From: Tetraselmis striata
Lineage: Eukaryota; Chlorophyta; Chlorodendrophyceae; Chlorodendrales; Chlorodendraceae
NCBI GenBank assembly: GCA_006384855.1
Contig: VCJN01000074.1
Span: 1-64,000 of the forward strand
Length of the DNA: 64,000 nt
Reading direction: 5' to 3'
Under the pieces are notes generated by a model. It was given only the letters and a program-made list of their open reading frames with translations, was not told where the DNA came from and did no database searches. Position 1 is the first letter of the stretch, and every line of letters starts with the position of its first letter. Both the position numbers and the translations under genes were made by a program. Positions 9,404 through 54,000 of the stretch are shown here, in pieces.

Positions 9404-9687
9404 TACACTTCTGGCGCGGGCTATATTCCGGGAGTCGAACCGTGCGGAACGGCCAAGTGACGGCGGAGATGCCGCGATGCCGGGCGATGCCGCCGAATTA
9501 GAAAGCAACCGCCCATCTACTACCACCCCCTCAAGCGAGACCGTCTACACTTGTGGCGCGGGCTATATTCCGGGAATCGAACCGTGCGGAACGGCCAAGT
9601 GACGGCGGAGATGCCGCGATGCCGGGCGATGCCGCCGAATTAGAAAGCAACCGCCCATCTACTACCACCCCCTCAAGCGAGACCGTC
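9404..9687. repeat. Tandem duplication, 142 bp x 2
   Basis: Bases 9404-9545 and 9546-9687 are adjacent direct copies, starting TACACTT.TGGCGCGGGC and ending CTCAAGCGAGACCGTC. I see only about two differences (C/G near the start and GGGAGTCG/GGGAATCG), so the duplication is recent. No coding function is evident. Confidence 0.92.
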
Positions 9688-13540: not shown

Positions 13541-13687
13541 TGCGTTAAACAGTAATGCAACCTATTTTGCCCCGAGGCACGCGGTGCATTGTGGTTAGGT
13601 CTAAATTAGGGTTTGGGGGCAGCTGTGGGATTGAAAGCTAATATGAATGCCGGTTGATTCATTTTGTGCCAAGTCGGGGAAACCAAT

Positions 13688-13863
13688 TCCGTCCAAGCAG
13701 GGACAAATCAAAAGAGTGAAGGAAACGGGATGGTTACAAGAAGTTTGCGCCATCGGGGGCTGAAACTATGTCCAAACTGGGACAAAAAGAAGTGCGGGGG
13801 CCGTGATGGCTACAAGCAGTTTGTGCCGTCCGGGGCTGAAACTCTGTCAAAGCCGGGACAAAA
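13688..13863 (-). repeat. Left-end cluster of three ~75-bp units, each ending in the 21-bp motif
   Basis: Three imperfect direct units each read TTTGYGCC...GGGGCTGAAACT...GTCCAAAC.GGGACAAA. Their 21-bp cores are at 13688-13708, 13767-13787 and 13843-13863; the second and third units share GATGG.TACAAG.AGTTTG. In reverse complement each core fits TTTYGTCCCA-N5-GACA, the sequence found at 25930-25950. These are candidate transposase-binding repeats. Confidence 0.75.
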
Positions 13864-13893
13864 CATATGAGCGGCTAATTTTGCGGAATTGTA

Positions 13894-16800
13894 CTACATA
13901 TCATCATCTTCGATCACATAATCCCCTCGGCGCTCTGCAGCCTCTTGCCTCCTCTTATCCGCCGCTGCACGCTCTTCCCGCTCCTCTAACTCGGTCATTG
14001 GACGGGGTAGACCCGGCCAATTCTCGAAGTCACTTGGACGCAGTCTTTGAGTCTCGTCCCATGGCTTCTCTTTGAACCATGAGGTCATCCTGGACTTCAT
14101 ACCAGCGATTTGCGTCTTCTGGTTGTCAATGAGGATCATCTTCAAGTTCCTGTGTGTGAACGAGTAGCTATGATCCATATGGTCCCACCACACGGAAAAG
14201 GCCGCAGCGACCTGGAAAAGGCGTGGCAAACCGCACAAGGCGTTAATTTTTTTATGCTGACCCCATTAAGACACTCACCCGGGTTGCACCCCTCACGCAC
14301 CGCGGTTGTCCCGGTTCCGGCTGTGACGTCGACGATTGTTGTCCCGTTTGTTGCCGCCATCTTAAGGTGCTTGGCGAAGAGAGCGATAGGCTTTTGGTAC
14401 TTGTTCACCGTCTGTCTGTTCTCGTCCTTCAATTTCGAACTGTCTTTGAAGTGACCCAACATGATGGATGTAGAGAACCTGGAAAGGCACAACTGGCTTA
14501 GCGAGTAAATAAATACAAGCCGGCTATTTTCCACGGATCAAATCTCACCTTCGGGGATCATTGAAACGGATGTTGTCAGCTATGATGCTTGGCGGGGGCT
14601 TCCTGACGTAGAGGTAGTACTCAGCGTCGTGACGCAGAGAGCTGCCCATCTTCATCCCGCAATCCTTGGCCCAAGTCAGGACGTGATAGATGAGGTCCTC
14701 AGCTTGCTTTTGAACGGCTGTGATTGCGGATCCAAGTTGCTGGTCCGAGAGGTGAATGAAGAAATGGCACCCATCGAGAGCAGTGTGGACGTCAGAAGAT
14801 CCAGTCAGGATATTCAACTGCCTGCGCGGGGGTAAATCGGGAATGAGATAAATGAAAGCACAGTCATCTAGTACGCACCGGGGTTGTGGGGGTTGTCTTG
14901 CCTGGCGAAAGCAAACACGTCGTTGAAGTCGTCCGTACCCCACGCAGCATCCTTCGAGTCCCATGTGTGCGAACCAGCTCCGAAAAGCGCGTCGGCAATG
15001 AAGACTGTTGCCTTTTTGGCACGAACTGCCGACATGGCGTCCGCGACGAATTGTTTTGTCGCGGGAGCCTTGAAGTTCCCCTCCACAATGCAAGTCTTGC
15101 AAAGCTCCGTGTTCAACCACACCTTCTCGTCCTTGTCGACCTCATGGCCCTTGGGCATCACCGGAAGTTTCTCGGCCTGTGTGTATTAGAAAACAGATTC
15201 GGGTTAATATAGCTCACAACGAAAATTCAGAAGAGCATTTGTGGTTGCACAAGATCTTAGTTACCTTCATCGATATCCACAGCTCATTAGAAACATTCGG
15301 AGCGGAAATCGCGATAAGCTCCGGCGCACATGCCAGAAGAGCAAACTCTGTGAAGAAGGAGATGACCAAGTCCGGCATCTGATTCTTGATGCGATACGCC
15401 TCACTCCTGATGGTGGTGTTGGTGGCCGCGATATGCTCTCGAACCGGTAGTGGTGTGAGACAATCGGCGGATTTCATGTCCCCCCATCTGGCAGGAGGGG
15501 TCAGCAAGACCATCAAAGGACCGGAGCGATGAGCACCTTTGAACAAATCCTGGAACTTTCTTGGGAAGCCTGTTGGGCCGAGGTCATCAACCTTGGCTCG
15601 GAACTTGGTGATGGCGTCAAGGCGAGCGGCCGCTTGCTCATCCGACACTTTGTCATCCACATCCATTTCGATGATGTGGTCCGAGAGATATTTCCCCCAG
15701 TTCCTGGCCGGTTCGTCCGGCGTCAGCAGTTGGAGTTCCTGTCCGTGTCCCTTTGCCGTGCCAATAGCATTCATGAGCTTGATGCTTGCTCGACGCAAGA
15801 GATCGCGAAACCGCCAGGTCTCAATCATCGCGAGCCACTCCGCGTTGGTGTGCGTAACAGCCATGGGGCCATTGTTGCCGGCATGCTTTATGTCATCCAC
15901 CAGCTCGTAGAGGCTCGGGGTCACACTGTGCTCGCCTTGGATGAGCAGTCCAACCACCAGGTACATCTGGCCCACAGGGAGATCCGCGCTGTCGCTCTGC
16001 TTGGCAAGAGACGGCTCGTCTAGCCAGGGCGCATGGGGTCCAAAGCCGACATCCTGGGTCGAAAAACAAACTTCAGTACGGAGAAAGGAAACAATGATAG
16101 TATTCCATATGATTAAGACACTGGGGTCGGTCACATCTTACCTCCATGAGGGCGACTCGGAAGTGAGCTCTGTCTTTCCCGAAGCCGTACTTCTTGTTAT
16201 CGAGGATTGTATTGATAGGCTTCCGAATTGCTTCGTAAACCTTGCTCACTTCCTTCTGGGTGAGTTGCCTGCCGTAATTGAGGCGCTTGACTCTATCGAG
16301 TTCTTGCTCGTAGTACACCAATAGGTCTCCGAGTTTGGTTCTGGCTTCGTCCCATCCTCTAACCCCGAGGTCCACGTGCCGGTAGGCTTCAGAAATCTGC
16401 TCAAGGGGCTCAAAAACACTGCGCAAATCATTTGTCAGAATCTAGCAGCATTAACAACACGATAAATTTTCATCATGTACGCAGCTCACCGTTGAGGGCG
16501 CGAGCAGAGGTCAATCAAATTTGAGAACTCGCCGCTCTTCTCATCTTTGATGCCGATCTTCTCAAGTTCAACTTGAAGAACTTCAGACTTCTTGAACTCC
16601 TTCACTACCCTGATTTGCGGAAGTGCCCTAAAGCCGGGGCGATTTGCATCCTGTTCTGCATACCAGCTCTCGAAACATCTGCGAAGGTTCTGCAGAAACA
16701 ATTGCACCGATTTCAAAATTCCGAACGCTTGTACCTCGATGACAAACCGTTTCGTCCCACTGATGACAGAACATTTCGTCCCGCTGATGACAGAACGGTT

Positions 16801-19800
16801 CGTCCCACTGATGACAGACCGTTTCGTCCCACTGATGACAAAACGTTTCGTCCCACTGATGACAAACCGTTTCGTCCCACTGATGACAAACCGTTTCGTC
16901 CCACTGATGACAAACCGTTTCGTCCCACTGATGACAGACCGTTTCGTCCCGCTGATGACAAACCGTTTCGTCCCGCTGATGACAAACCGTTTCGTCCCAC
17001 TGATGACAGACCGTTTCGTCCCACTGATGACAAACCGTTTCGTCCCGCTGATGACAGACCGTTTCGTCCCACTGATGACAGACCGTTTCGTCCCGCTGAT
17101 GACAGACCGTTTCGTCCCGCTGATGACAGACCGTTTCGTCCCGCTGATGACAGACCGTTTCGTCCCGCTGATGACAAACCGTTTCGTCCCATTGTCACAT
17201 ATTTTTAACCCGCTAACGACAGAACGACTTTTGTCACACTTTACGCCTATTTGCTGCCACGGTTAGCTAAATAGTAATTTGGGAGAATGGGTCACTCACC
17301 AGGAGTTTGTGCATCGACGTGTCTCCCACGACGGTGTGACCTGCCTCGTTGAGCTTCATAGACATGTAGCGGCAGACTTCCGGCGAGAGGCCGATGTACA
17401 TCTTAGTCGACGTGAGGTGGATGCCTTTGTTGGCGTTGTAGATTTCCGGGTAGTTTTCTTTCACCATGCGCTTCGCCTCCCGTCTGTGGCTGCCGTCGAT
17501 GTTGGCTTGACGCGCGCCGTGGGCGCCAAGAAACTCGACGATGACGTCGATCTCTGGCTTGTAGGAACTTGAATCCGCCAACCTCGGGTTCTCCCCGCCT
17601 TCGTCTGCTGCGACTAGCTCCTTGAAGTTGGCCATGGTCTGAGCGAGGGGCTCGTACTCATCGGAGAAAAAACCTTGTTTAGGGACTACTGGAAAGGACA
17701 CCGAGAAATTCTCGGCGGACAGGGAAGGATTTCTCTGAATAACAAATGCAAGAAATGGATGTCAGTAAGTTGCATCGTGTATTGATTTATATGTAACTAC
17801 ACATATCTGATCCGGATAGGTACAACAGGTCGCGATAGGCTTTTACCTTGTAGCTTTGCGCCACCATATTGCAGTCTTGCAGCTTTGGGGAACGGAATTC
17901 AAATTCCGGCGGCGGAGCGACGAACTTATCGGATATGAAGCTGAAAATGTAAGGCAGCCCCGTATCCTTGTTGACCACGAGGTTGACTCTGTCGGCGTAT
18001 AGCGTGTTGATGTCGCCACCGTGAGATGTCTTCACCTCTGGATCAGCAATCTCGACTCTGAGGTGGCCGTAAGAGATCCAGTCGACGGCACCGGTGTTGT
18101 GGAAGCCATTCAAGGCCGGCGGGACGGCCAACGTGTTGACGTATGGAAGCGCGTTCTTAAAATCCTTGTCAATGTTGGCCAAGTCATTGATGTAAATCTG
18201 ACCAGACGCGAAACCTGTCAGCGCCTGCGCCAGCACATTCCGCTCGACCAAAGTCCATGCGTAGTAAGACTGGAACCGCGGCTGGAAGGAGAGTGGCGGC
18301 TGGATCGCGTGGATTAGCAACCTCTCAAAGCTGACATCGATCCTGAACTCCTTGTGCACTGTCAAGCGATAAGGTTCAAGGGAGATCTGCGGTAACAAGC
18401 ATAAGAATATTAATACTTATTAAAACACGACATTGACACGAATTCAGACATCATGTAAGCTTTACTCACCCCGTAGTTTCCGGCCGAGTCCAGCTCGACG
18501 TCCTTGATCTTTCCGATACACGCGAGAAGTGGCCCCTTCGGATCATCGAAAAAATCCTTGCCAGTCAGCAGGCTCGCCTTGTGCAATTCGATGTACAAGT
18601 AGATCTCTACATCAGCACTTGCGTTCTTGAACCAGTGGATAGTCCAGCTCCTTGAGGTAAAGTCGCTGTAGGAGTCATTTTCTTGGGACCCGTCCCTCTC
18701 GTCAAAGAAGTCGTCGTAAGAGGCGACCGTCATCAGCTTTGTCTTCCTCTCGGGTCCAGGAGTGCCGGTGATGTCGAGAGCTTGCTTTCGCTTCTCTGCC
18801 GCCCGTTGCCTCTGTTCTTCCTCTGTGCCGAAGACCTCTTCATCCGTGCACATACTGAGGAATTCAGGAATCCTTCTCGGAGCCTCGGCAACAGGGTCTC
18901 GAGAACCAGAGGCTCCAGAACCAGACACTTGCCCGGTAGTCGGCGCTGGAGTCTCGGGCTCGGCCTCTGGCGCCGGGTCAAGTCGAGTGGGCTCGGGCTC
19001 CGGCTCGGGCTCCGGCTCCATCTGAGTGGGCTCTGTTTCAGGCGCCGGCTCGGGCTCCGGCTCCGGCTCAGTGTGCTCTATTTCAGGCTCAGGCTCTGTT
19101 TCCGGTACTTGAGATGGGCCTTTAGACAAAGAAGAGCCTTGATTTGGGGAACCTGTAAAGAATGAGTAGAGAGTACTCAACACACCTGCAGTGGGCGTCA
19201 CGATTAACTACTGAACGGTATCGCCATACACCATCAAAGCCAAGCGTATTTTTTCTTACCTGGGGATCCCGATCTACCAGCTGCTTCCGACGCGGTTGCC
19301 TGCGCCAATTTACGACCTGTTGGAACGTCAGGTAACTCATTGACGAGAAAGTAATCGAAGGGAGTGAGAAGGCAGGGATTGATACTTTAAGTCACAATTA
19401 CCTGGCGTCACAATCGTCTCTGAAACCTTTTCTTTTCCCTTGGATTCCTTTGAAGCTTGAGTCGCTACTGGCTCATGTGCGCGTCCTTTCGAACCTGTCA
19501 ACACACATGATTTCAAACAATGTAAATATGACACAGTGCACTCACAAAGGCAGGGATTGATACTTTAAGTCACAATTACCTGGCGTCACAATCGTCTCTG
19601 AAACTTTTTCTTTTCCCTTGGATTCCTTTGAAGCTTTAGTCGCTGCTGGCTCATGTGCGCGTCCTTTCGAACCTGTCAAAACACATGATTTCAACCAATG
19701 TCAATATGACACAGTGCACTCACAAAAATTATATGATTGGAGAGGCAAGGACCTGATTGATAGTAAGCTTGCATGAGTTTCTCGTAATCGATTAGCCTTC

Positions 19801-21443
19801 GCGCTGTCTGCATTTGAGCATCTGAGAGGACTTGTCCGCTCTTGATTCGGGCCCTCAAAAGCAAGGCGGCCGATCTTTCTCCTTGCGAGTGCGTGCCGTA
19901 AGCCGGCACTCTACCTCTTAAAAGGCTCGGTTTCCAGGGGTTACCTGATGCCTCATCGCCGGCTCCAGCTGCAGAAGCTGAGGCTGCACGGCTCTTCTTC
20001 GCCGCCGGCTGCTCGGGCACAGAAGATGACGCCTTGTGTTTCCTCCCGACTAGCGCTCCGAGCGCATCGAATTCTTTTGCTTTCTCGGTAGGTTTTGATG
20101 TCCGCTTGGACCTTCGACCTAAAAATATCATATCCTGTCAGACCGTTTCGTCCCACTGATGACATACCGTTTCGTCCCTCTGTTGACAGAACGTTTCGTC
20201 CCACTGATGACAGAACGTTTCGTCCCACTGACGACAGACCGTTTCGTCCCACTGATGACGAACCGTTTCGTCCCACTGATGACAGAACGTTTCGTCCCGC
20301 TGATGACAAACCGTTTCGTCCCGCTGATGACAAACCGTTTCGTCCCACTGATGACAAACCGTTTCGTCCCACTGATGACAAACCGTTTCGTCCCACTGAT
20401 GACAGACCGTTTCGTCCCACTGATGACAGACCGTTTCGTCCCACTGATGACAGACCGTTTCGTCCCACTGATGACAGACCGTTTCGTCCCACTGATGACA
20501 GACCGTTTCGTCCCACTGATGACAAACCGTTTCGTCCCACTGATGACAAACCGTTTCGTCCCACTGATGACAGACCGTTTCGTCCCACTGATGACAGACC
20601 GTTTCGTCCCACTGATGACAGACCGTTTCGTCCCACTGATGACAGACCGTTTCGTCCCACTGATGACAGACCGTTTCGTCCCACTGATGACAGACCGTTT
20701 CGTCCCACTGATGACAAACCGTTTCGTCCCACTGATGACAAACCGTTTCGTCCCACTGATGACAAACCGTTTCGTCCCACTGATGACAAACCGTTTCGTC
20801 CCACTGATGACAAACCGTTTCGTCCCACTGATGACAGACCGTTTCGTCCCACTGATGACAAACCGTTTTGTCCCACTGATGACAAAACTATTTTCAATAC
20901 ATTATGTACTGCGGTTTAATAATGTAATGTCTGTAAGTACTGCGCTTCACACTAATATTAAACCACTCCTTACGGCGGAGTACAGGCAGAGGTTCCCCCT
21001 GGCCGCTCTTCACCCCCACCCCCTCCCACCACCAATTAGCATCCTTACTGCTTGCAACAGCTGCCTCGACGGGACGTAATACTACCATGCAGGACCCTGA
21101 TGCCGCTCGTCTCGTTTGTGTTTATATTCTCACTCGTCTGCCTACACCTCGAGCGGTCCTAGATTACACCTCTTCTACAGGGAACCCTAACCGAACTCGC
21201 TAGATCTGGCCGCATCACGCGTCGAGCAGGCAGGCGGCTACTGTACGCTGCCACTCGTCTGCCTACACCTCGAGTGGTCCTAGATTACACCGCTTCTACA
21301 GTGAACCCTAACCGAACTCGCTAGATCTGGCTGTATCACGCGTCGAGCAGGCAGGCAGCTACTGTACGCGCGCGCAACTCACCTGGGGTGGCGTCGTCCT
21401 TGTCTTCCTTGTCCTTGGCAGGCTCGTTCTTCTTCGGCGCCAT
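13894..21443 (-). CDS. Large multi-exon protein ending in a permuted DNA adenine-methyltransferase-like domain
   Basis: ATG at 21443 (MAPKKNEPAKDKEDKDD); about 15 exons, stop at 13894, roughly 1,550 residues. Order: a Lys-rich start; SKRTSK...PAAKKSRAASASAAG (20118-19750); two duplicated Ser/Lys exons (19370-19727); an acidic EPEPEP linker (19130-18940) and a folded part to 18472; exons 18386-17850, 17735-17300, 16690-16493, 16420-16142 and 16053-15265 with no family I recognise. The last exons resemble a beta-class (permuted) N6/N4 methylase. VFIADALFGAG...HTWDSKDAAWG (about 15010-14930) sits where DPPYG is expected. Then come YQKPIALFAKHLKMA (14390-14345) and the SAM-binding-type loop IVDVTAGTGTTAV (14340-14300). 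The DPPY box is altered to DALF, so activity is doubtful. The C-terminus is Glu/Arg-rich and acidic (VIEDDDM). Introns 1 and 8 contain minisatellites. Confidence 0.6.
16741..17198 (+). repeat. Intronic minisatellite array A, 24 bp x ~19
   Basis: Monomer GACARACCG followed by TTTCGTCCCRCTGAT, about 19 head-to-tail copies varying mainly at A/G after GACA and A/G in CCCRCTG. It lies within the intron between the exon ending at 17300 and the exon starting near 16690 of the minus-strand gene, antisense to it. The left edge abuts CTTGTACCTC; the right edge decays at CCCATTGTCACATATTT. Confidence 0.95.
19370..19727 (-). repeat. In-frame tandem exon duplication, 179 bp x 2
   Basis: Bases 19370-19548 and 19549-19727 are adjacent direct copies covering an exon plus flanking intron. 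Each exon encodes GSKGRAHEP.AT.ASKESKG followed by KEKVSETIVTPG, bounded by an acceptor (GACAG) and a donor (CCAG|GTAATTG). Exon length preserves phase, so the duplication adds about 32 residues without a shift. The copies differ at only a few positions (for example CTACTGG/CTGCTGG). Confidence 0.85.
20135..20888 (+). repeat. Intronic minisatellite array B, 24 bp x ~31
   Basis: Same monomer and same plus-strand orientation as the other arrays, about 31 copies; long runs of identical units suggest recent expansion. It lies in intron 1 of the minus-strand gene, between the donor at 21382 and the acceptor at 20119. Because 24 is a multiple of three, it reads open in several frames on both strands (RPFRPTDD, RFVPLMTD, SVGRNGLS); this is not evidence of coding. 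Confidence 0.95.
21131..21372. repeat. Tandem duplication, 121 bp x 2
   Basis: Bases 21131-21251 and 21252-21372 are direct copies starting CACTCGTCTGCCTACACCTC and containing AACCCTAACCGAACTCGCTA and ATCACGCGTCGAGCAGGCAG. About eight differences. They lie in intron 1 of the minus-strand gene, immediately after its donor site; a role as intronic enhancer or spacer is unknown. Confidence 0.9.
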
Positions 21444-21988
21444 TCTGGCGGTAGGTAGGTTGACGCGGTAGATGAGCGTGTTTCTTGGTGGGAAGCGGTG
21501 AGGGAGAGGTGGAAATGACGTGGTTTCCGTCTGCCGCCGCTCTGACCCCTGCTGGACCAACGGCGCGCGTGCGCACACTATAGTGTACTTCGTCGTCGTC
21601 ATCAGGTTCATGTATTTTGCACCGCGACGAATATACAGGGCTAACTACTGCGACTATATATTACTATTACTGGAAGATAAAATATTCCCTACTCGAGAGT
21701 CATAACGGTACGAGAGTACAGTGGCGTGGCAATAATATTCCTTCATGGGATGATATATTCCTTGGATTGGATTCGGGTGTACTTACTAGTATAGAACTAT
21801 TTCCGACATACGAAAGAAGCACGAAATAGCACGGTATTTGAGTCATCAATTATTTTGACCCGTACCTGGATATTATGCACCCCGGTCAACGGCCCGTCCG
21901 AGAACGGTCATCGGCCGTCACTCTTCCTCACCACAGATCACAGTCCTCCCCCCCCCCCCCCCCCCCCCACCCACTCGCCCCGCGCTGC
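21444..21988. promoter_or_regulatory. Shared divergent promoter region of the two element genes
   Basis: This ~545-bp stretch separates the ATG at 21443 (minus) from the ATG at 21989 (plus), so both promoters must lie here or overlap. The centre is AT-rich (ACTATATATTACTATTACTG at 21652-21671, GATATATTCC at 21751), offering TATA-like words in both directions. A C-rich tract at 21947-21969 sits just before the plus-strand start. No start site can be fixed from sequence alone. Confidence 0.4.
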
Positions 21989-24900
21989 ATGGCGGCGGTC
22001 GAAAGCATGGCCTCTTCTCCAGGATCCGGCGCGTCGGACACTACAGTTACATTACCGCTGTGTTCGTGCCGCAGTGGATACTCGTGTGATTGCGACGCGC
22101 GTGCGAGTGATCGTAAGGAGCCTGAGAAAAGGAAGTACACGTGGGGCAAGGGCTGCGATGAGGTCGCCGAAAGCGGTAATGGCAAGGTCTCGTCTCTGAT
22201 CAGCAAGCGCACCTCTCGCGATTGTATCCGCCTCATGCTCGCCAAGGAGGCTAGCGAGCAGTCGCCATGCTGTTCGCGCAAGTGCGTGCACAAGCTATAC
22301 ACACAGTGCGGAGAGGCCCTCGTTGATGCCGTGTTGGACCGTGCGTTGACTGTATACTCTGGCAATCAGAACCGCTCCTTTGACCGGCTCGCTCAGGTTC
22401 TCAGGGGCGGCTACGAGTCGGCATCCGACAAGTTCGATTACATGTTTGATCACGGTGGCTACTTGCGCTCTTTCGATCATCGCGGCCCCATCTACACGTG
22501 TGGGCGTGCGTGGGAGGTCTTGCATCAGGTCTCGAAACACAGACGTCTCGTGATCCAGCGGTCGGTGGTGGATAACGAACCCACGTACATCAGGCAGCGC
22601 AAGCAATACGAGAGCAGACAGACCGGACCGAGGGAGCATGTGCGCATGTTTCTCGAGCACTTCTTCTCGGATGACCTCGGTCACGTCGAGATCATGCCTT
22701 TTCATGACGGAAACAGCGAGACCTTCAAGAAGCACCTACCTCCCTGGATGACCAAGATTTGCGTCTACTACTACTACAAGTCGTGGGCCGAGGACGACAA
22801 CGCCATTCTCCGTGGTGAGGCCCATTTTGTCCCACTGATGACATACCGTTTCGTCCCGCTGATGACAGACCGTTTCGTCCCGCTGATGACAAACCGTTTC
22901 GTCCCACTGATGACAAACCGTTTCGTCCCACTGATGACAAACCGTTTCGTCCCACTGATGACAAACCGTTTCGTCCCACTGATGACAAACCGTTTCGTCC
23001 CACTGATGACAAACCGTTTCGTCCCACTGATGACAGACCGTTTCGTCCCACTGATGACAAACCGTTTCGTCCCACTGATGACAAACCGTTTTGTCCCGCT
23101 GCTGACAGACCGTTTTGTCCCGCTGATGACGAACCGTTTCGTCCCACTGTTGACAAACCGTTTTGTCCCGCTGATGACAAACCGTTTTGTCCCACTGATG
23201 ACAGAACGTTTCGTCCCGCTATCGCCAGAACGTTTAGTCCCACCGACGCCGGACCGATTTCGTCCCACTGATGACAGAACGTTTCGCACCGCTCATGGCA
23301 TACCGTTTCGTCCCACCGACCGCAAAAGTATTTGTCCCACATAATTAGCCGATATCGTCCCACTGCAGAGAGAACGTCTTGTCCCACTGCTGAGATACGG
23401 TTTTGTCCCACTACTGACATACCGTTTCGTCACACTGTTGACAGATTGTTTCGCCATGCTGATTACAGAATTATTCACCCACTACCGATATAATTATTTC
23501 GACCCACTTCAGACCGAACTTTTCTGTCTCGCATTATGAGACCTTATTTGTATACCGACATATCACGCCCCTGCCCCTTTGTAGATTTGGCTACCGAGAG
23601 CGAAGTGAAGCTCGCATCGTTCGACACTTTCCGCCGGACTTGGAAGGAAGACTTCCCGGATGTCACCACGCCGAAGGTGAAGCGATTCAGCCACTGTCCC
23701 ATATGCGCGGCGGGCAAAGCACTCAGAGACCAAGCTCGCGAGATTTGCACAAAGGACATGACGCCAGAGGAACGTCAAGTGCACCGTCAACATCAGCAGC
23801 TGGTGAGGCGTCAGGTCAGAGCTGAGCAGAAGGTACACCTCGAGAGAGTGCGCCAGGAACGAAGGGATCTGAACAACGCCGTCTTCCAGTCGCGCCTTGG
23901 CCATGGAAACTTCTTCTTCTTCGAAATTGATAGCATGGACTCCGCGAAGACCCTGCTGCCTCACTGGGTTCGCATCCCCAAGACTGTGAAGCCCGACATG
24001 CTCCTCAAGTACCACCTCACCTGTGTGAAGTACGACGGATACCGCCCGGACGACATCTACTACTACACCAACACCATCCCCCACGATTCGTCCACGACGT
24101 GCACTCTGATATGGATCACGATCATGAAGGTGAGCTCGTTAGCCTCCCGATAGGTTCGCCGTGGTTGTCCGGTAGCCATGGACTGATGAAAGCTTGTCTG
24201 CGATGCAGGAAATTCAACACCGTGGTAGAAAGATTCCGTACATCAGAATCCAGATGGACAACACCGTCAGGGAGAACAAGAATAGGAACGTGGCGGCCCT
24301 CTGCAATTGGCTTGTGTCTATCGGCATCTGCGACGTCATTCATTTGGTCTTCTTGCCTGTCGGGCACACTCACGAACGGGTTGACCAGATCTTCAGCCGC
24401 ATCAGTCTTGCGCTATCTCGCAGCTCCGCCTACACAATCGAGGCCTTTCTTGACTTGGTGGCGAAGGCATTCTCGCCCACTCCGGAGATTGCTGAGCTCT
24501 CATTCTCCCTCGACTTCTCTGAGTGGTTAAGGCCCCATTTCCAAGACCACATTCAGGACATCAGTAAGCCGCACAAATTCGAGTTCACCCGTGACGACGC
24601 CGCCGCGTCTGGCGGCTCGTTGCGCACCGCCTTGTGGTCCAACACACCGCTTTCGGAGCCCGTGCAGATCTTGAAGAGCGCGCCAACTGGGACGCCCGAG
24701 ATTCGTGCGGGCCGGCCCCTTTTGTACGCTCTCTGCGACAAAAAGAAGCCCGACGCGGTGAAGGTCCAGAGGTACTTGGATGATTTCAAGAAGGTCAGGT
24801 CGTACATCACGGACCTGGCGGTCCAGTGGCACTTCTCCCCAGTCGAGCGCGAGAGCTGGAAGAATCTGCTCGACGACTTGGATGAGATGCAAACTGCTCC

Positions 24901-25855
24901 TTCGGCAGCTTTCTCCGGGTTCTGGCCGCAACGGAAAGAGGAAGTTGACGACTTCTTGCGCGAGCACGGGCAGACCGCGCCTGCTGAGGCACGTCACACG
25001 ATGGCTACCAACGCAGACCTCAACAATGCCGAAGCCGCTCGCGTGGAAGCCGAGGTTCGTGCTCAAGTGCTTCAAGATGACAGCGCCTTCCGGGGAGTTC
25101 ACGCCGGCGCCAAGGAGAGGCTTCATGACAACACATCGCCCAGCGATGCAAAGGGCTCGAACCTCGTTGTCATCGACGTCTCCGATGTGAGTCCCATTGT
25201 TTGTCATTTTTGTCCTTTACGGGACAAAACAATTTGGTTCTTCTACCTTGCTTGTTATTTTGTCCCAGCTGGGACAAAAATGGCGTGGCGTGTCGCTCGG
25301 GACTAACATAGCTCGCGGTCTTGGTCATCGTTAGGTGCATGAGGAAGACAAGTGTCCTGAAACTCTTGGTGATTGGGAGTCGAGATTCGTCATCGGGCTT
25401 GTGAAGTCGCGCGAGACTACCGAAGACACGTTGACCGTGGCCGTATACGAGCCCTTCCATGCCGATGCAAAGGGCAAACCCCTTATGCCCCTATGGTTGT
25501 ACGCGCAGACAAAAGGAGGGAAGAAGCCAGTTGACACAAGCTGGGAGAAGTGCTGACGCTTCCTTGGAAGCTTGTTGAAGCCGTCCCCCTATCGTACGCG
25601 AAGGCCATCCACGACGCGTCGGGAAGTCGAGAGGTGTTCAACGAGGACGGCACCATGGTCAGAAAGAAGTGGTACGGTAAAAGCGTCCAAGTCGTGAAGA
25701 CATATGCGCAAACTGGGTGGCAAATCAGCCAGCCACGAAACAACTGCGTCCACGTCATGTCAACCACCCCAGCGCAACGCAAACCCGGCGGAGTCGTCAA
25801 GTTTAATGCAGCCACGAAGAAGGACTTGCTTGAGTTGGGGATGCTCAACGAATAA
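21989..25855 (+). CDS. DUF7869-type putative transposase, frameshifted near its C-terminus
   Basis: Exons 21989-22814, 23585-24129, 24209-25186 and 25335-25855; the first joins are consistent in phase (R|D LATESEVKL). The N-terminus has a Cys cluster (PLCSCRSGYSCDCDA) and further Cys pairs (SPCCSRKCVHKLY). Exon 2 has HCPICAAGKALRDQAREI, a conserved Cys motif of this family, and FFFFEIDSMD. Exon 3 carries the signature QMDNTVRENKNRNVAALCNW and VFLPVGHTHERVDQIFSRIS, matching the DN-x-x-ENKN / GHTHE-x-VDQ-FS core of DUF7869 proteins, which are common in transposon-rich eukaryotes and thought to have an RNase-H-like fold. In exon 4 the frame VDTSWE(KC-stop) must shift by -1 near 25546 to reach EVLTLPWKLVEAVPLSYAKA and the stop at 25855. 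This is decay, a sequencing error or real frameshifting. Intron 1 holds minisatellite array C. Confidence 0.68.
22826..23440 (+). repeat. Intronic minisatellite array C, ~16 clear plus ~9 decayed copies
   Basis: Same 24-bp monomer and plus-strand orientation as arrays A and B, but here in the sense direction of its host gene, filling intron 1 (donor after 22814, acceptor before 23585). Copies from 22826 to about 23210 are regular. From 23210 to about 23440 they decay progressively (for example TTTAGTCCCACCGACGCC), giving a young-to-old gradient along the array. Confidence 0.93.
25208..25278. repeat. Two single 21-bp palindromic motifs in intron 3
   Basis: 25208-25228 reads TTTTGTCC-TTTACGG-GACAAA and 25258-25278 reads TTTTGTCCCAGCTGGGACAA plus A, a perfect palindrome around AGCT. 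Both lie in intron 3 of the plus gene (25187-25334). Length and spacing equal the core of the minisatellite monomer. Confidence 0.85.
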
Positions 25856-25929
25856 ACTATCAGCAACGTCTTGTGGCTAGCTAGCCGCTGGATGTAATAA
25901 TCATAATAAATATTGATTTCATTGCCTCA

Positions 25930-25950
25930 TCTTGTCCCATTTTGGACAAA
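25930..25950 (+). repeat. Right-end copy of the 21-bp motif
   Basis: Reads TCTTGTCCCA-TTTTG-GACAAA about 75 bp past the stop of the plus gene. It matches the left-end copies in inverted orientation (13767-13787 reversed: TTTTGTCCCA-GTTTG-GACATA). Confidence 0.75.
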
Positions 25951-25960
25951 ATGCTCCAAA

Positions 25961-26639
25961 ACCAACATTGGATATGCGTCGCGGCTGGCCTTCATGCTGT
26001 TGAATGCTGCACTGCACCCAAGGTCTACAAACCCAAGCTACATCACCAGTGAGTCTTAAGTACTGATAGTAAACCCGGGAACTAGGGTATAAACAAACCC
26101 TACGGTGCAAAATGAATTCCACGGCGCAAAATAGGTTAAATTACTGTTGTTATGTGTCTGCATGCAGAAAGCGTATTACTGCTCCAGATGATGCTGATCA
26201 TACATGGGCGGCTTCGGGTACATGCAAGTACTACTTCGGAGTTTGCCGTCCAGACGCCCCGTACTGCGACGGCCAGCTTCTGGGGGTAATCAAGAACTTT
26301 TGGGAGTATGTCAGCACCCTGAAGATCCGTGACCTTTTACATCGCCGTTGCTGCCTGCCCGTGGTTCCCGCTGCAAGGGGCGTTGCTGAAATGTGTGTGG
26401 TCTCACAGGATATGCGGCCCAAGATCAAGAAATGGACAGCGGATGGCGTTGGTCGCTTTGACCAATGACTTTGGCAGGCCAGTCCGGCCGATGCTGCCGT
26501 CAACCGGCACTAGCGGTGCTTGTGGTGTGTGCCAAATGGACATGCGAGGACTTCCTGCACTTCGCGGAGACGGTGGCAATGCTGGTCCTTGGGTTAGGCG
26601 CCCCCGCTGCTATTGTTACGACTAACATAGCCCAGCTTC
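25961..26639 (+). other. Unassigned sequence between two elements
   Basis: A plus-strand frame (26112-26468) reads KRITAPDDADHTWAASGTCK and YYFGVCRPDAPYCDGQLLGV, with Cys/His residues that could belong to a decayed zinc-binding segment. I do not recognise it. It might be upstream sequence of the retroelement that follows or displaced transposase sequence. Confidence 0.25.
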
Positions 26640-27830
26640 GCTGTATGTGGAATCTTCTTTTGGCCACATTTGCAGAAGACTGAAGTTACGTCTTATATCA
26701 AGGATTGCAAGGTTTGCAACCTCAGACACAAAGCAGCATCACCAAGCTCTTGTTGCAGCCTTGCATCCCTTGTTGCCTACTAGTCGGCTATGGAAATATT
26801 CCAGTCTTGATTTTATAACAAACTTGCATGTGGTCGATGGTTATGACATCATTGTCACTTTTGTGGACACGTTATCAAAGCATGTCCATTTTGAACCTTA
26901 TACTAGATCTATAACTGCCAAGCAGCTTGTTCATATTTACATTACCAATTTAAATTTATGGCCTTAGTGTTTGGATGGCGGGTGGCAAGGATGCCAAATA
27001 TACCTCTGAATATTTTGAAGAGCTTTTCGCTGAGCTTGGCACTATCTTTCATCTTAGCATAGCTTTTATCACCCACAGACTGTTGGCCCCACGGAAATAA
27101 TTTGTAAAATTGTAGAGCAGTTGATATGAGCCTTTTTTTTATTATATCCAATCCAAATGGCTGCATTACTTACCGTTCGTTGGCAGAGTTTAATTTCAAT
27201 TACAACTCGGAGTTGTCCTACTCAACAAAACAAACTCCGTTTCAAGCGATGCACGGGTTTCACCGCCGCACTCCATTGGACACGGTCCACCCATTTAATC
27301 ACATTAGGCAGCCCCCTCTGGACCTTCCATTAGATTTACAAAATATCCATAACTTGGTCCTTGAAAATATTGAAATAGCTGAATAAGAATATCAAAGATA
27401 TTACTATCCTGCCTCACACACAACCACTTCTAAGTGTAAACCTTTTGATGAGATCATGATCCGGAATGTCGACCTTCTCATACGAGGGCAAACCCGTACA
27501 AAGTTACAACGAAATATGTAATCAAGATCACTGAAATGATCACCCCTCAGGCATATCGCATTGACCCGCCTCCACAATAATGTAGGTTGGTGTGCCACAC
27601 AGTGTTCCACATTTACAAATTCCCGCCAAAATACGAAAATGGGACACATCAACATGTCAACAAAAAACTACCATATCCTTTGATTGGCAAAGAGGTTACA
27701 CGAACAGATGACCATGTTATAGCCCAAGTTTTGGATTGCGAAATTGTAATCTACCCACGTTGTATGCCTTTAGTTCGACCTTGCTTTTCCGAGTAAGGTG
27801 CCGCAATTTTTCAGAAGCTGCGGATGACTG
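26640..27830 (+). pseudogene. Ty3/gypsy-type integrase remnant with stops and frameshifts
   Basis: Pieces in successive frames follow the integrase order of Ty3/gypsy elements. First comes the CC half of the HHCC zinc finger (FFWPHLQKTEVTSYIKDCKV, then CNLRHKAA, about 26652-26737). Next is the start of the catalytic core (YSSLDFITNLHVVDGYDIIV, TFVDTLSKHVHFEPY, TAKQLVHIYI, about 26800-26950), with the first acidic residue in SLDF. Then, after frame changes, LAEFNFNYNSELSYSTKQTP and FQAMHGFHRRTPLDT (about 27170-27290), and finally VCHTVFHIYKFPPKYE (about 27590), the post-core segment. Several stops separate them. No long terminal repeat was identified and the reverse transcriptase is missing, so this is an old truncated copy. 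Confidence 0.65.
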
Positions 27831-51000: not shown

Positions 51001-54000
51001 TCACCTCGCACGCGAAACAGCAAGTTGTCATCCGTTCTCTACAACACTGTGTCCGCAGTCGCTGGACCGCTGCCGTCGCTCGGGCGTCCAAACGCTGCGA
51101 ACCCTGAACGCCCCGTTTCTTGCCACTCGTTCGGACGCTTTAATCGCGCTGGCATCGTGCCACCTGGCGACCAAGGCCCAAAAGCGCGGCTTTGCGAGCC
51201 GACTCGCGCAAATCAGCCTGCCGATCGAGTGAAGGTCGCGACGCGGCGAGCCTTGGGGCTTGCGTTCAGAGATAGATAGGGGTCCGGCCGCCATGCCAGG
51301 CCCTGCAGCGGCGAGGGTTGGCATCGGAGCGGCGCCGAGCCACGCCGTCCGCGGCAGGCGAGCCAGACCAATAGCGGTGGTGGTGGCCAGGCAGACGCCG
51401 TCGCGGAGGCACCCCAGGGACGTGGGCATTGCGCGGCGTATAGGCGGTAATACTGCTGTGAGCGCTGCGGCGCCCCGTTCGACCTTTGCGCCGCCCTCAC
51501 GGGTGGTCGAGGCGGCCGAGGCGGAAGCGGAGGTCAAGGGCGGGCAGTGCCCCGTCTCGGCGCTGCTCGGGCGGACGCCGCGGGCGGCAGGGGGCACCGC
51601 GCCGCCTGCTGGTGCACCCGTCCGCACACCAGGCCCGCCGGCACTGAGCCTCGCCTCCCTGTTGGATGTCAGCAAAATCCTGGCGTTCGGCATCCAGGAG
51701 GCCATGCTGCAGTACTTCGATAAATACGGCCCAGTGTGCCGGTGAGCAATCCACAGCCCCATAATCCCTACCGCCAATGCCTTATCAAGAGGCAAGGGGG
51801 GGGGATATTAGTTTCACACTCACACTCACACTCACACACACACACACACACACACACCTATACGGCGATACGTACATATGTCTTGATAGGGACAGCCCTG
51901 ACAAGACCATACTTCCTGCTGCGGGTATTCACACCCACATACATGTGGGTATATAAATACGATATATTATGCGAAGAATTTTCAGCAAATCAAGAGTGCG
52001 CTTGACTATTGGTGCCTGATGTCATGCTGCCATCCCTGACCACCTAGATTCGCAAACCCGGTGGACCTCAACGGCGCCGCGGGCTGGCTGATGGTGAACA
52101 GCCCGGACGACATCGAGCACGTGTGCGCGCAAAACGTGAAGAACTACACCGACCGCTACCTCCCGGACATCTACAAGTGGGTGACCGCCGAGAAGGGGAT
52201 CCTGGGCTCGCAGGGAAGCTACAACCGCAAGCACCGCCGCCTGTGCCAGCCGACCTTCCGTCGACCTGCACTCCTGGAAGGCTTTAGCGACGTCATTGCC
52301 GCAAGGCGAGTCGCCGCCCAGGGGCCTCTGGGCCGATCCTGCCTTCTACATAATAGTCACCTGGGGCACGCGGTCTAACGGGTGGAAATTTCTTGCCCTG
52401 CAGGGCGGGGCGGCTCGCGGATCTGTACGGCGCACAAGAGGGCAAGTTCGAGGTGGACATGGCGCTGCAGATGCAGCGCCTCACGCTGGATATCATTGGA
52501 GAGGTGGCGTTCAGCTACGACTTCCAGCAGGTGGATCAGATTGAGAGGTACGCCGCAGAATGGCTGAGCGCTGCTCTGCCCAGAAGCATCGTGTTCTGGG
52601 GGTTGGACTTAGTGGATGGGGTGTGCATGCTTCGGCGCAGTGAGCTTAAGGCCGCAGGCGCGCGCCCGGGAAGGGGGCAGGATAAACTGCTGGACGCGGT
52701 GAACCGCTTCGGCGAGGTGATGGCGGACGTGTTCATAACGCCAATGCCGCTGCTCAAGGCGATGGACCGGGTGGGGCTGCCGGCGCTGCGCGACCTGCGC
52801 GGCTCGCTAGACGTCATCCGCGCCGTCATGCTGGATATCATCCGCGAGCGCCGGCGGCAGCTGCGGGCCGACCCGGGCGCGGAGTACGGCGACCTCCTGG
52901 GGCAGCTGCTGTGCGCGGAGGACGAGGACGGGCACCGCGCGACGGACGAGGAGGTATGGCACGACGTGCACGACATCATGGGCGCCGGCCACGAAACGAC
53001 TGCCACCACAGCCGCCGCCACCATCTACTGCGTGGCTGCGCACCCCGAGGTGGACCGCCTGGTGGCGCAGGAGCTGGCGGACCTGGGCGGCGCGCCCCCG
53101 AGCTACGCAGACCTCGAGCGCCTGCCCTACCTCAACCAGGTCGTGAAGGAGGTGCTTCGCATGTACCCCCCGATCCCGCTGTTCCCACGCCAGGCCGCGG
53201 AAGCCGACCAGCTGCCGAGCGGGCACGCGGTGCAGGCCGGGGACGTGGTGTTCATGAGCTCCTACACCCTGGGGCGCGACCCCACGCTGTGGGAGGATCC
53301 CATGGAGTTCCGCCCCGAGCGCTTTGCGCCCGAGGCGGACGCAACACGCCACATGTACCAGTGGCTGCCCTTTGGCGCGGGCCCCCGAATGTGCCTAGGC
53401 GCCGGCTTCGCGCAGATGAGCGTGGTGCTCATGGCCGCCCACCTCCTGCAGCACTTCCGCTTCCGTCCCATAAACCCCGACACCCTGACGCTGCCCATCG
53501 ACTACGACATCACCCTGAACTTCGGCCCAACCAACGGCCTCAAGATGGCAGTGGAGCGGCGGTGAGCGGATGCGAAACCAGCCCTGGGTCGCAGGTGTAT
53601 TCTGTATAATGTACCCTACTTCGGGCTGTTGAGGTCCTGATCCACAAACACGCTTCCCAACGATCATGGCCAGAGTAGAACGTGCCTACCCCTCCCCCCA
53701 CCCCCCCACACACACACCCTTCGTCCAGCTGCTATAGCTGTGGACTGATTGTAAACTATCTATACATTCGAAGCGAGATTCGTGACCGGTCTACCAATTT
53801 GCTGCATGTCTAGAGGTGTGTTTTTTGGGGCGGGGGGCGGGGGGGGGGGGGGGGGGGACTCACGAGACCCTCGTCCATCTCCATGATGGCGCCTGTCATA
53901 AAGTCATCCTCTGCCCAGCCGATGATGAGCACCTTGACCTGCAGGCACACACCCCAGCAGCATGTGTGACCACCGGAAGACACCTAACACCCTGCATGAT

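What the first reader, a model, noticed from the sequence alone, without database searches (positions are those of the whole stretch)
13688..25950. One 21-bp quasi-palindrome unites element ends, an intron and three satellites
TTTYGTCCCA-N5-GACAAA occurs at 13688, 13767 and 13843 (reversed), 25208, 25258 and 25930 with identical 10+5+6 spacing. The 24-bp minisatellite monomer is exactly this 21-mer (with CTGAT as spacer) plus CCG. This suggests the arrays are amplified copies of the element's own recognition site, possibly transposase-binding decoys, titration sites or replication/silencing signals.
Basis: seen in the sequence. Interest (0 to 1): 0.9.

Follow-up and report, generated by a model that had tools for sequence, protein, structure and literature searches.

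The report
Transposon with intron arrays of its end-motif
A 12.6-kb jumping gene in a green alga carries six copies of one palindromic DNA word near its two ends and three long tandem arrays of a variant of that word inside its introns, which suggests that a protein-binding site of the element was amplified inside the element itself.

Summary
The motif is real and not chance: 85 hits in the window (0.8 expected), all inside one element. The six isolated sites are subterminal, 140-316 bp (left) and 197-941 bp (right) inside, best written as a 22-bp palindrome TTTTGTCCCA-RY-TGGGACAAAA with invariant GTC-N8-GAC. The 24-bp monomer matches it at 15 of 20 positions (P = 5.5e-5). All three arrays are intronic and recur at the same places in two other copies with different unit numbers; array 3 keeps one exact donor/array junction in at least 100 places. 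Both intron palindromes outlast neighbouring intron 22-mers (p 0.011 to 0.00016); the 3' site does not outlast its neighbour. DUF7869 is predicted to be a DDE integrase/transposase core. Most likely: dimeric binding sites of an element protein, one variant of which expanded into intron arrays. Binding, and any function of the arrays, are inferred.

The parts
13548..26148 (.). whole element, 12,601 bp
   Evidence: homology of other copies stops at or within a few bases of 13548 and 26148 in most of the 33 loci that one search aligned; both termini found as inverted repeats
13544..13547 (.). left target-site duplication GTTA
   Evidence: same 4 bases at 26149-26152
26149..26152 (.). right target-site duplication GTTA
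13548..13575 (+). left terminal inverted repeat AACAGTAATGCAACCTATTTTGCCCCGA
26121..26148 (-). right terminal inverted repeat AACAGTAATTTAACCTATTTTGCGCCGT
13687..13708 (.). subterminal palindrome 1 (left)
13766..13787 (.). subterminal palindrome 2 (left), in a 76-bp tandem duplication
13842..13863 (.). subterminal palindrome 3 (left), in a 76-bp tandem duplication
25208..25229 (.). palindrome B, in the last intron of the DUF7869 gene
   Evidence: 228 exact genome copies, 0 in the reversed-pattern control
25258..25279 (.). palindrome A, perfect 22-bp palindrome in the same intron
   Evidence: 213 exact genome copies, 0 in control
25930..25951 (.). palindrome C, beyond the stop codon of the DUF7869 gene
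   Evidence: 207 exact genome copies, 0 in control
16738..17191 (+). array 1, 24-bp units, in an intron of the minus-strand gene
20139..20884 (+). array 2, 24-bp units, in an intron of the minus-strand gene
22825..23520 (+). array 3, 24-bp units (decayed after 23208), in the first intron of the DUF7869 gene
22007..25855 (+). DUF7869 (PF25273) gene, predicted DDE transposase; exons about 22007-22813, 23584-24129, 24209-25186, 25335-25855; this copy is out of frame by one base near 25553 relative to family proteins
13894..21443 (-). second element gene, divergent, many exons, C-terminal part weakly like N6_N4_Mtase (PF01555)

Best explanation
The window holds one copy of a multi-copy two-gene DNA transposon of a green alga (proteins named Tetstr1, which I decode from memory as Tetraselmis striata). 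SHOWN: ends, terminal repeats, six subterminal palindromes, three intronic arrays of a related 24-mer, recurrence in other copies. INFERRED: the palindrome is the site of a dimeric DNA-binding protein of the element (the DUF7869 transposase or its partner), loading protein near both ends beside the terminal repeat, which itself carries a variant half-site (TTTTGCCCC). Sites stand only in non-coding DNA (untranslated flanks and the last intron), so that the right-hand set spans an exon. One asymmetric variant (strong left half, weak right half, fixed CTGAT spacer and CCG linker) was amplified once into a tandem array by slippage or unequal exchange; arrays in the three introns share that origin. 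The arrays persist because introns tolerate them; a regulatory effect (titration of the protein, chromatin) is possible but not shown.
Confidence: 0.55

Rival explanations
1. Neutral minisatellites: a short palindrome is prone to slippage and expanded in introns without any role; the isolated sites are leftovers of the same family and bind nothing.
For: Arrays show homogeneous centres and decayed edges and vary in length between copies, as minisatellites do; folding of array RNA shows no common pattern; palindrome C is no better kept than its neighbour.
Against: Six palindromes, three near each end, are hard to get by slippage alone, though two of them are a duplication; intron palindromes outlast their neighbours; the left terminal repeat holds an 8-of-9 half-site (P = 0.004).
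Confidence: 0.25
2. The word is a site of a host factor (chromatin, silencing, replication or recombination protein) that the element has gathered.
For: A dyad with invariant GTC-N8-GAC would suit any dimeric DNA-binding protein; sites lie in both flanks and introns.
Against: All 85 window hits lie in the element and 31 of 44 exact palindromes are tied to an exact right terminus; the distant DUF7869 family lacks it in the one stretch read.
Confidence: 0.12
3. RNA-level role: hairpins in introns and 3' flanks steer splicing, 3'-end formation or small-RNA production.
For: Palindrome A and its intron fold better than shuffles (z -4.1 and -4.4) and one array piece does (z -6.4).
Against: Two other array pieces do not (z -0.9 and +0.2); arrays keep one DNA orientation although two lie antisense to their gene; left site 13687 and palindrome C lie at or beyond likely transcript ends (my reading of TGTAA signals).
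Confidence: 0.06
4. The second element protein, weakly methylase-like, reads the palindrome and the arrays as a self-marking (epigenetic) signal.
For: PF01555 match at E 2e-5 in the minus-strand gene, found in 5 of 17 family members scanned; a motif-I-like IVDVTAGTGTTAVA is present in four of 17 members and, with V to I, in one more.
Against: Below Pfam's cut-off (25.1 and 25.4 against 26.7 bits); 12 of 17 models do not show the motif-I string (many models are partial); where a DPPY-type motif is expected 13 of 17 read ADALFG (the expectation is from memory), which would argue against catalysis; structure could not be predicted.
Confidence: 0.08

Closest known systems
TIR DNA transposons with subterminal repeats bound by their own protein (En/Spm-CACTA TnpA sites, Ac/hAT subterminal repeats; recalled, no call)
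   Same: Short motif repeated within a few hundred bases of both ends next to distinct terminal repeats; two-gene layout as in En/Spm
   Different: Termini AACAGTAAT, 4-bp duplication, DUF7869 transposase, and the motif also amplified as three intron arrays
Tetris foldback transposon of Drosophila virilis (PMC4079207, abstract and introduction read)
   Same: A DNA transposon whose internal tandem repeats relate to its end region and seed satellite-like arrays
   Different: Tetris repeats are about 220 bp inside its terminal repeats and it appears non-autonomous; here 24-bp units lie in introns of element genes
Kolobok superfamily (PMC9587614, abstract and background section read)
   Same: DDE transposase (here predicted), 4-bp duplication, termini beginning RR, accessory protein genes in some lineages
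   Different: Kolobok duplicates TTAA; here GTTA, GTTC, AGTT
Retrotransposons with captured DNA methyltransferases (PMC5890265, abstract and section list seen)
   Same: A mobile element of algae encoding a methylase-related protein
   Different: Those are C5 enzymes in retrotransposons; here a weak N6/N4-type match in a DNA transposon, activity doubtful

Membership tests
PF25273 (DUF7869) | Pfam score above cut-off | tested here: met
   128.8 bits in the window exon, cut-off 26
DDE (RNase H-like) transposases | three conserved acidic residues at the RNase H positions | tested here: met
   D385/D388, D468, E507 invariant where covered (17/17, 17/17, 18/18 of 23); predicted at end of strand 379-386, after strand 460-467, in helix 506-522
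DDE (RNase H-like) transposases | fold like solved DDE enzymes | tested here: met
En/Spm (CACTA) | CACTA-type termini and 3-bp duplication (recalled) | tested here: not met
   termini AACAGTAAT, duplication 4 bp
Kolobok | TTAA duplication | tested here: not met
   GTTA, GTTC, AGTT in three copies; definition
other DDE superfamilies (Academ, Novosib, Dada, Zisupton and so on) | sequence relationship of the transposase | not tested
   no reference sequences at hand; no paper in the library holds the term DUF7869
N6/N4 DNA methylase (second protein) | Pfam PF01555 above cut-off | tested here: not met
   25.1 and 25.4 bits against 26.7
minisatellite | head-to-tail units of 10-60 bp, length-variable | tested here: met
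   24-bp units; unit numbers 11-19, 20-37 and 25-36 for arrays 1, 2 and 3 over three copies

The most novel reading that the evidence does not exclude
The intron arrays are a working part of the element: dozens of in-built copies of its own protein-binding site that titrate transposase (copy-number self-limitation) or seed chromatin on the element, so that a transposon regulates itself with a private satellite.
Probability: 0.15. Interest if true: 0.8.

Novelty: new variant of a known kind. Interest (0 to 1): 0.5.

Why it matters
Links between transposons and satellites are usually seen as debris. Here the array unit resembles a repeated palindrome near the element's ends, and arrays stand at fixed intron places in many copies, so one can ask directly whether a transposon amplifies its own protein-binding site and what that does to its activity. 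It also gives DUF7869, a domain of unknown function seen in this alga, in unnamed environmental contigs and in a sea urchin, a likely role as a DDE transposase, with defined ends, terminal repeats and target duplication.

Tried and rejected
Chance similarity of monomer and palindrome: rejected at P = 5.5e-5. Motif as terminus: rejected. Coding arrays (24 is a multiple of 3 and the unit reads open in five of six frames; one plus frame holds TGA): rejected, since gene models P0059, P0060, P0061, P0064 and P0068 skip array 3, none of five minus-strand models aligns to arrays 1 or 2, and of 163 collected proteins only one (P0050) contains one of six unit-derived peptides, once. Viral origin: the array word gave 0 matches in the viral contigs, and of the stretches matching patterns of two DUF7869 proteins (29 and 6) none encodes a relative. 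Rfam: no match in the window at gathering score. PDB by sequence: none at E up to 1. Stronger conservation of arms among close copies: not significant. Site C against its neighbour: no difference. The first intron control is rich in CpG, so a second one without CpG was used. No paper in the library holds DUF7869; the listings of searches on transposase sites or subterminal repeats with satellites (1, 2 and 6 papers; titles and starts of abstracts seen, Tetris read in part) and on TnpA (none) showed no report of this arrangement. Ten searches of an open-licence library are not proof of absence. The fold list names no eukaryotic transposase beyond mariner-like ones (Mos1, Metnase); that is not evidence of exclusion.

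Full report
WHAT IS THERE. The window is contig C54 of a 224-Mb genome whose proteins are named Tetstr1; I read that name from memory as the green alga Tetraselmis striata. Thirty left-end and thirty right-end copies were fetched, the best-scoring of 399 and 415 first-look candidates. In the 33 that a plus-strand comparison could align (18 left, 15 right, the window's own copy once at each end) similarity to the window mostly stops at or within a few bases of 13548 on the left and 26148 on the right. Reading all 60 in the proper orientation, 59 show a terminus AACAGTAAT.. (L043 did not). The two ends form inverted repeats. The window copy is flanked by GTTA on both sides, a copy on C154 by GTTC, one on C2525 by AGTT; of the seven copies with both ends read, three show such a duplication and four do not. 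The terminal word occurs 550 times at up to one mismatch, none for the reversed control. Of 100 exact termini listed, 20 neighbouring inward-facing pairs are 7.3 to 28 kb apart, 14 of the 20 between 11.1 and 12.8 kb.

THE WORD. Only 25258 is a perfect palindrome, TTTTGTCCCAGCTGGGACAAAA. All six sites and the array unit share GTC-N8-GAC. They lie 140 to 316 bases inside the left end and 197 to 941 bases inside the right end, not at the ends; the right set is split by an exon, with two sites in the last intron (25187-25334, my reading) and one beyond the stop codon. The half-site words TTTTGTCC and GGACAAAA occur 9 and 5 times in the element, arrays included, and never in the other 51 kb; the shifted word GGGACAAA occurs once outside. 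The left terminal repeat carries TTTTGCCCC, 8 of 9 like the half-site, the right one TTTTGCGCC, 7 of 9; a random 28-mer reaches 8 of 9 with probability 0.004.

IS THE ARRAY UNIT THE SAME WORD? The unit TTTCGTCCCACTGATGACAAACCG agrees with the palindrome at 15 of 20 arm positions; random circular 24-mers reach this in 5.5e-5 of cases. Its left half is strong (9 of 10), its right half weak (6 of 10; my count). Variable positions in 193 units of nine arrays are mainly 4, 10, 20 and 22; positions 10 and 20 also vary among the isolated sites when these are turned to match the unit best, with shared alleles (A or G at 10; A, G or T at 20).

THE ARRAYS. All three lie in introns: five known gene models join 22813 to 23584 or skip the stretch between across array 3, and none of five minus-strand models aligns between 20890 and 20139 or between 17191 and 16738. 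All have one orientation in the element although the two genes are divergent. Copies on C18 and C24 have the arrays at the same places; arrays 1, 2 and 3 count 19, 31 and 25 units in the window, 15, 37 and 36 on C18 and 11, 20 and 28 on C24. The junction of splice donor and array 3 occurs 189 times at up to three mismatches (control 0), and the 100 listed rows are all exact over 29 bases. On contigs up to C586, 26 of 31 exact junctions have palindrome A downstream, 24 of them 2.0-2.8 kb away; two are 8.8 and 9.7 kb away and five have none. The same variants segregate in nearly all nine arrays, so the arrays most likely have one origin. In total 17,499 motif hits at up to two mismatches lie in the genome against 328 for the reversed pattern.

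IS THE WORD UNDER CONSTRAINT? I compared four nearby 22-base words (20 fixed bases each) of one intron by exact genome count: palindrome B 228, control 147, palindrome A 213, control 160. Paired by place over 63 loci on contigs up to C586, each palindrome is kept more often than each control (p 0.011, 0.0015, 0.0025, 0.00016). The window letters equal the consensus of the 33 right-end copies in all four words. Against this, palindrome C equals its neighbour (207 and 204), and among 33 close copies the arms show no significant deficit of variants (p = 0.34). So the intron sites give a signal and the 3' site does not; the left sites were not put to this test. Loci share history, so the p values are only indicative.

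FAMILY LIMITS. A distant DUF7869 family in the same genome was read in one 1781-base stretch: its C-terminal region reads through without an intron at the matching place (my reading), and it has no palindrome. On the 12 contigs up to C586 where one search found it, no exact palindrome A lies within 10 kb (compared by eye). The word thus looks particular to this family, as binding sites of a transposon's own protein would be.

VERDICT. The shared word is real, subterminal rather than terminal, and amplified in introns. Binding by an element protein is the most likely reason (0.55). That the arrays do something is open (0.15). The anatomy is a new variant of a known kind: a DDE transposon with subterminal repeats.

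Noticed in passing
13894-21443, minus strand: Second element gene with a weak N6/N4 methylase match; where a DPPY-type motif is expected it reads ADALFG, so activity is doubtful.
   Followed up: partly
19369-19726: Tandem 178-bp duplication that appears to hold one small exon and its intron twice (my reading of splice sites).
   Followed up: no
21131-21369: Tandem 121-bp duplication in the first intron of the minus-strand gene (my reading), close to the region between the two divergent genes.
   Followed up: no
about 25553: The DUF7869 gene of this copy is out of frame by one base relative to family proteins such as P0059.
   Followed up: partly
26600-27600: Sequence resembling an LTR-retrotransposon integrase region next to the element (by eye, not tested).
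   Followed up: no
52357-53562: Cytochrome P450 gene (PF00067, E 1.7e-66).
   Followed up: no
L091 (G000:C2707:70200-71980): Distant DUF7869 family; several places have long open frames of about 760 aa, so it may be recently active.
   Followed up: partly
9404-9687: Tandem 142-bp duplication outside the element, 98% matching.
   Followed up: no
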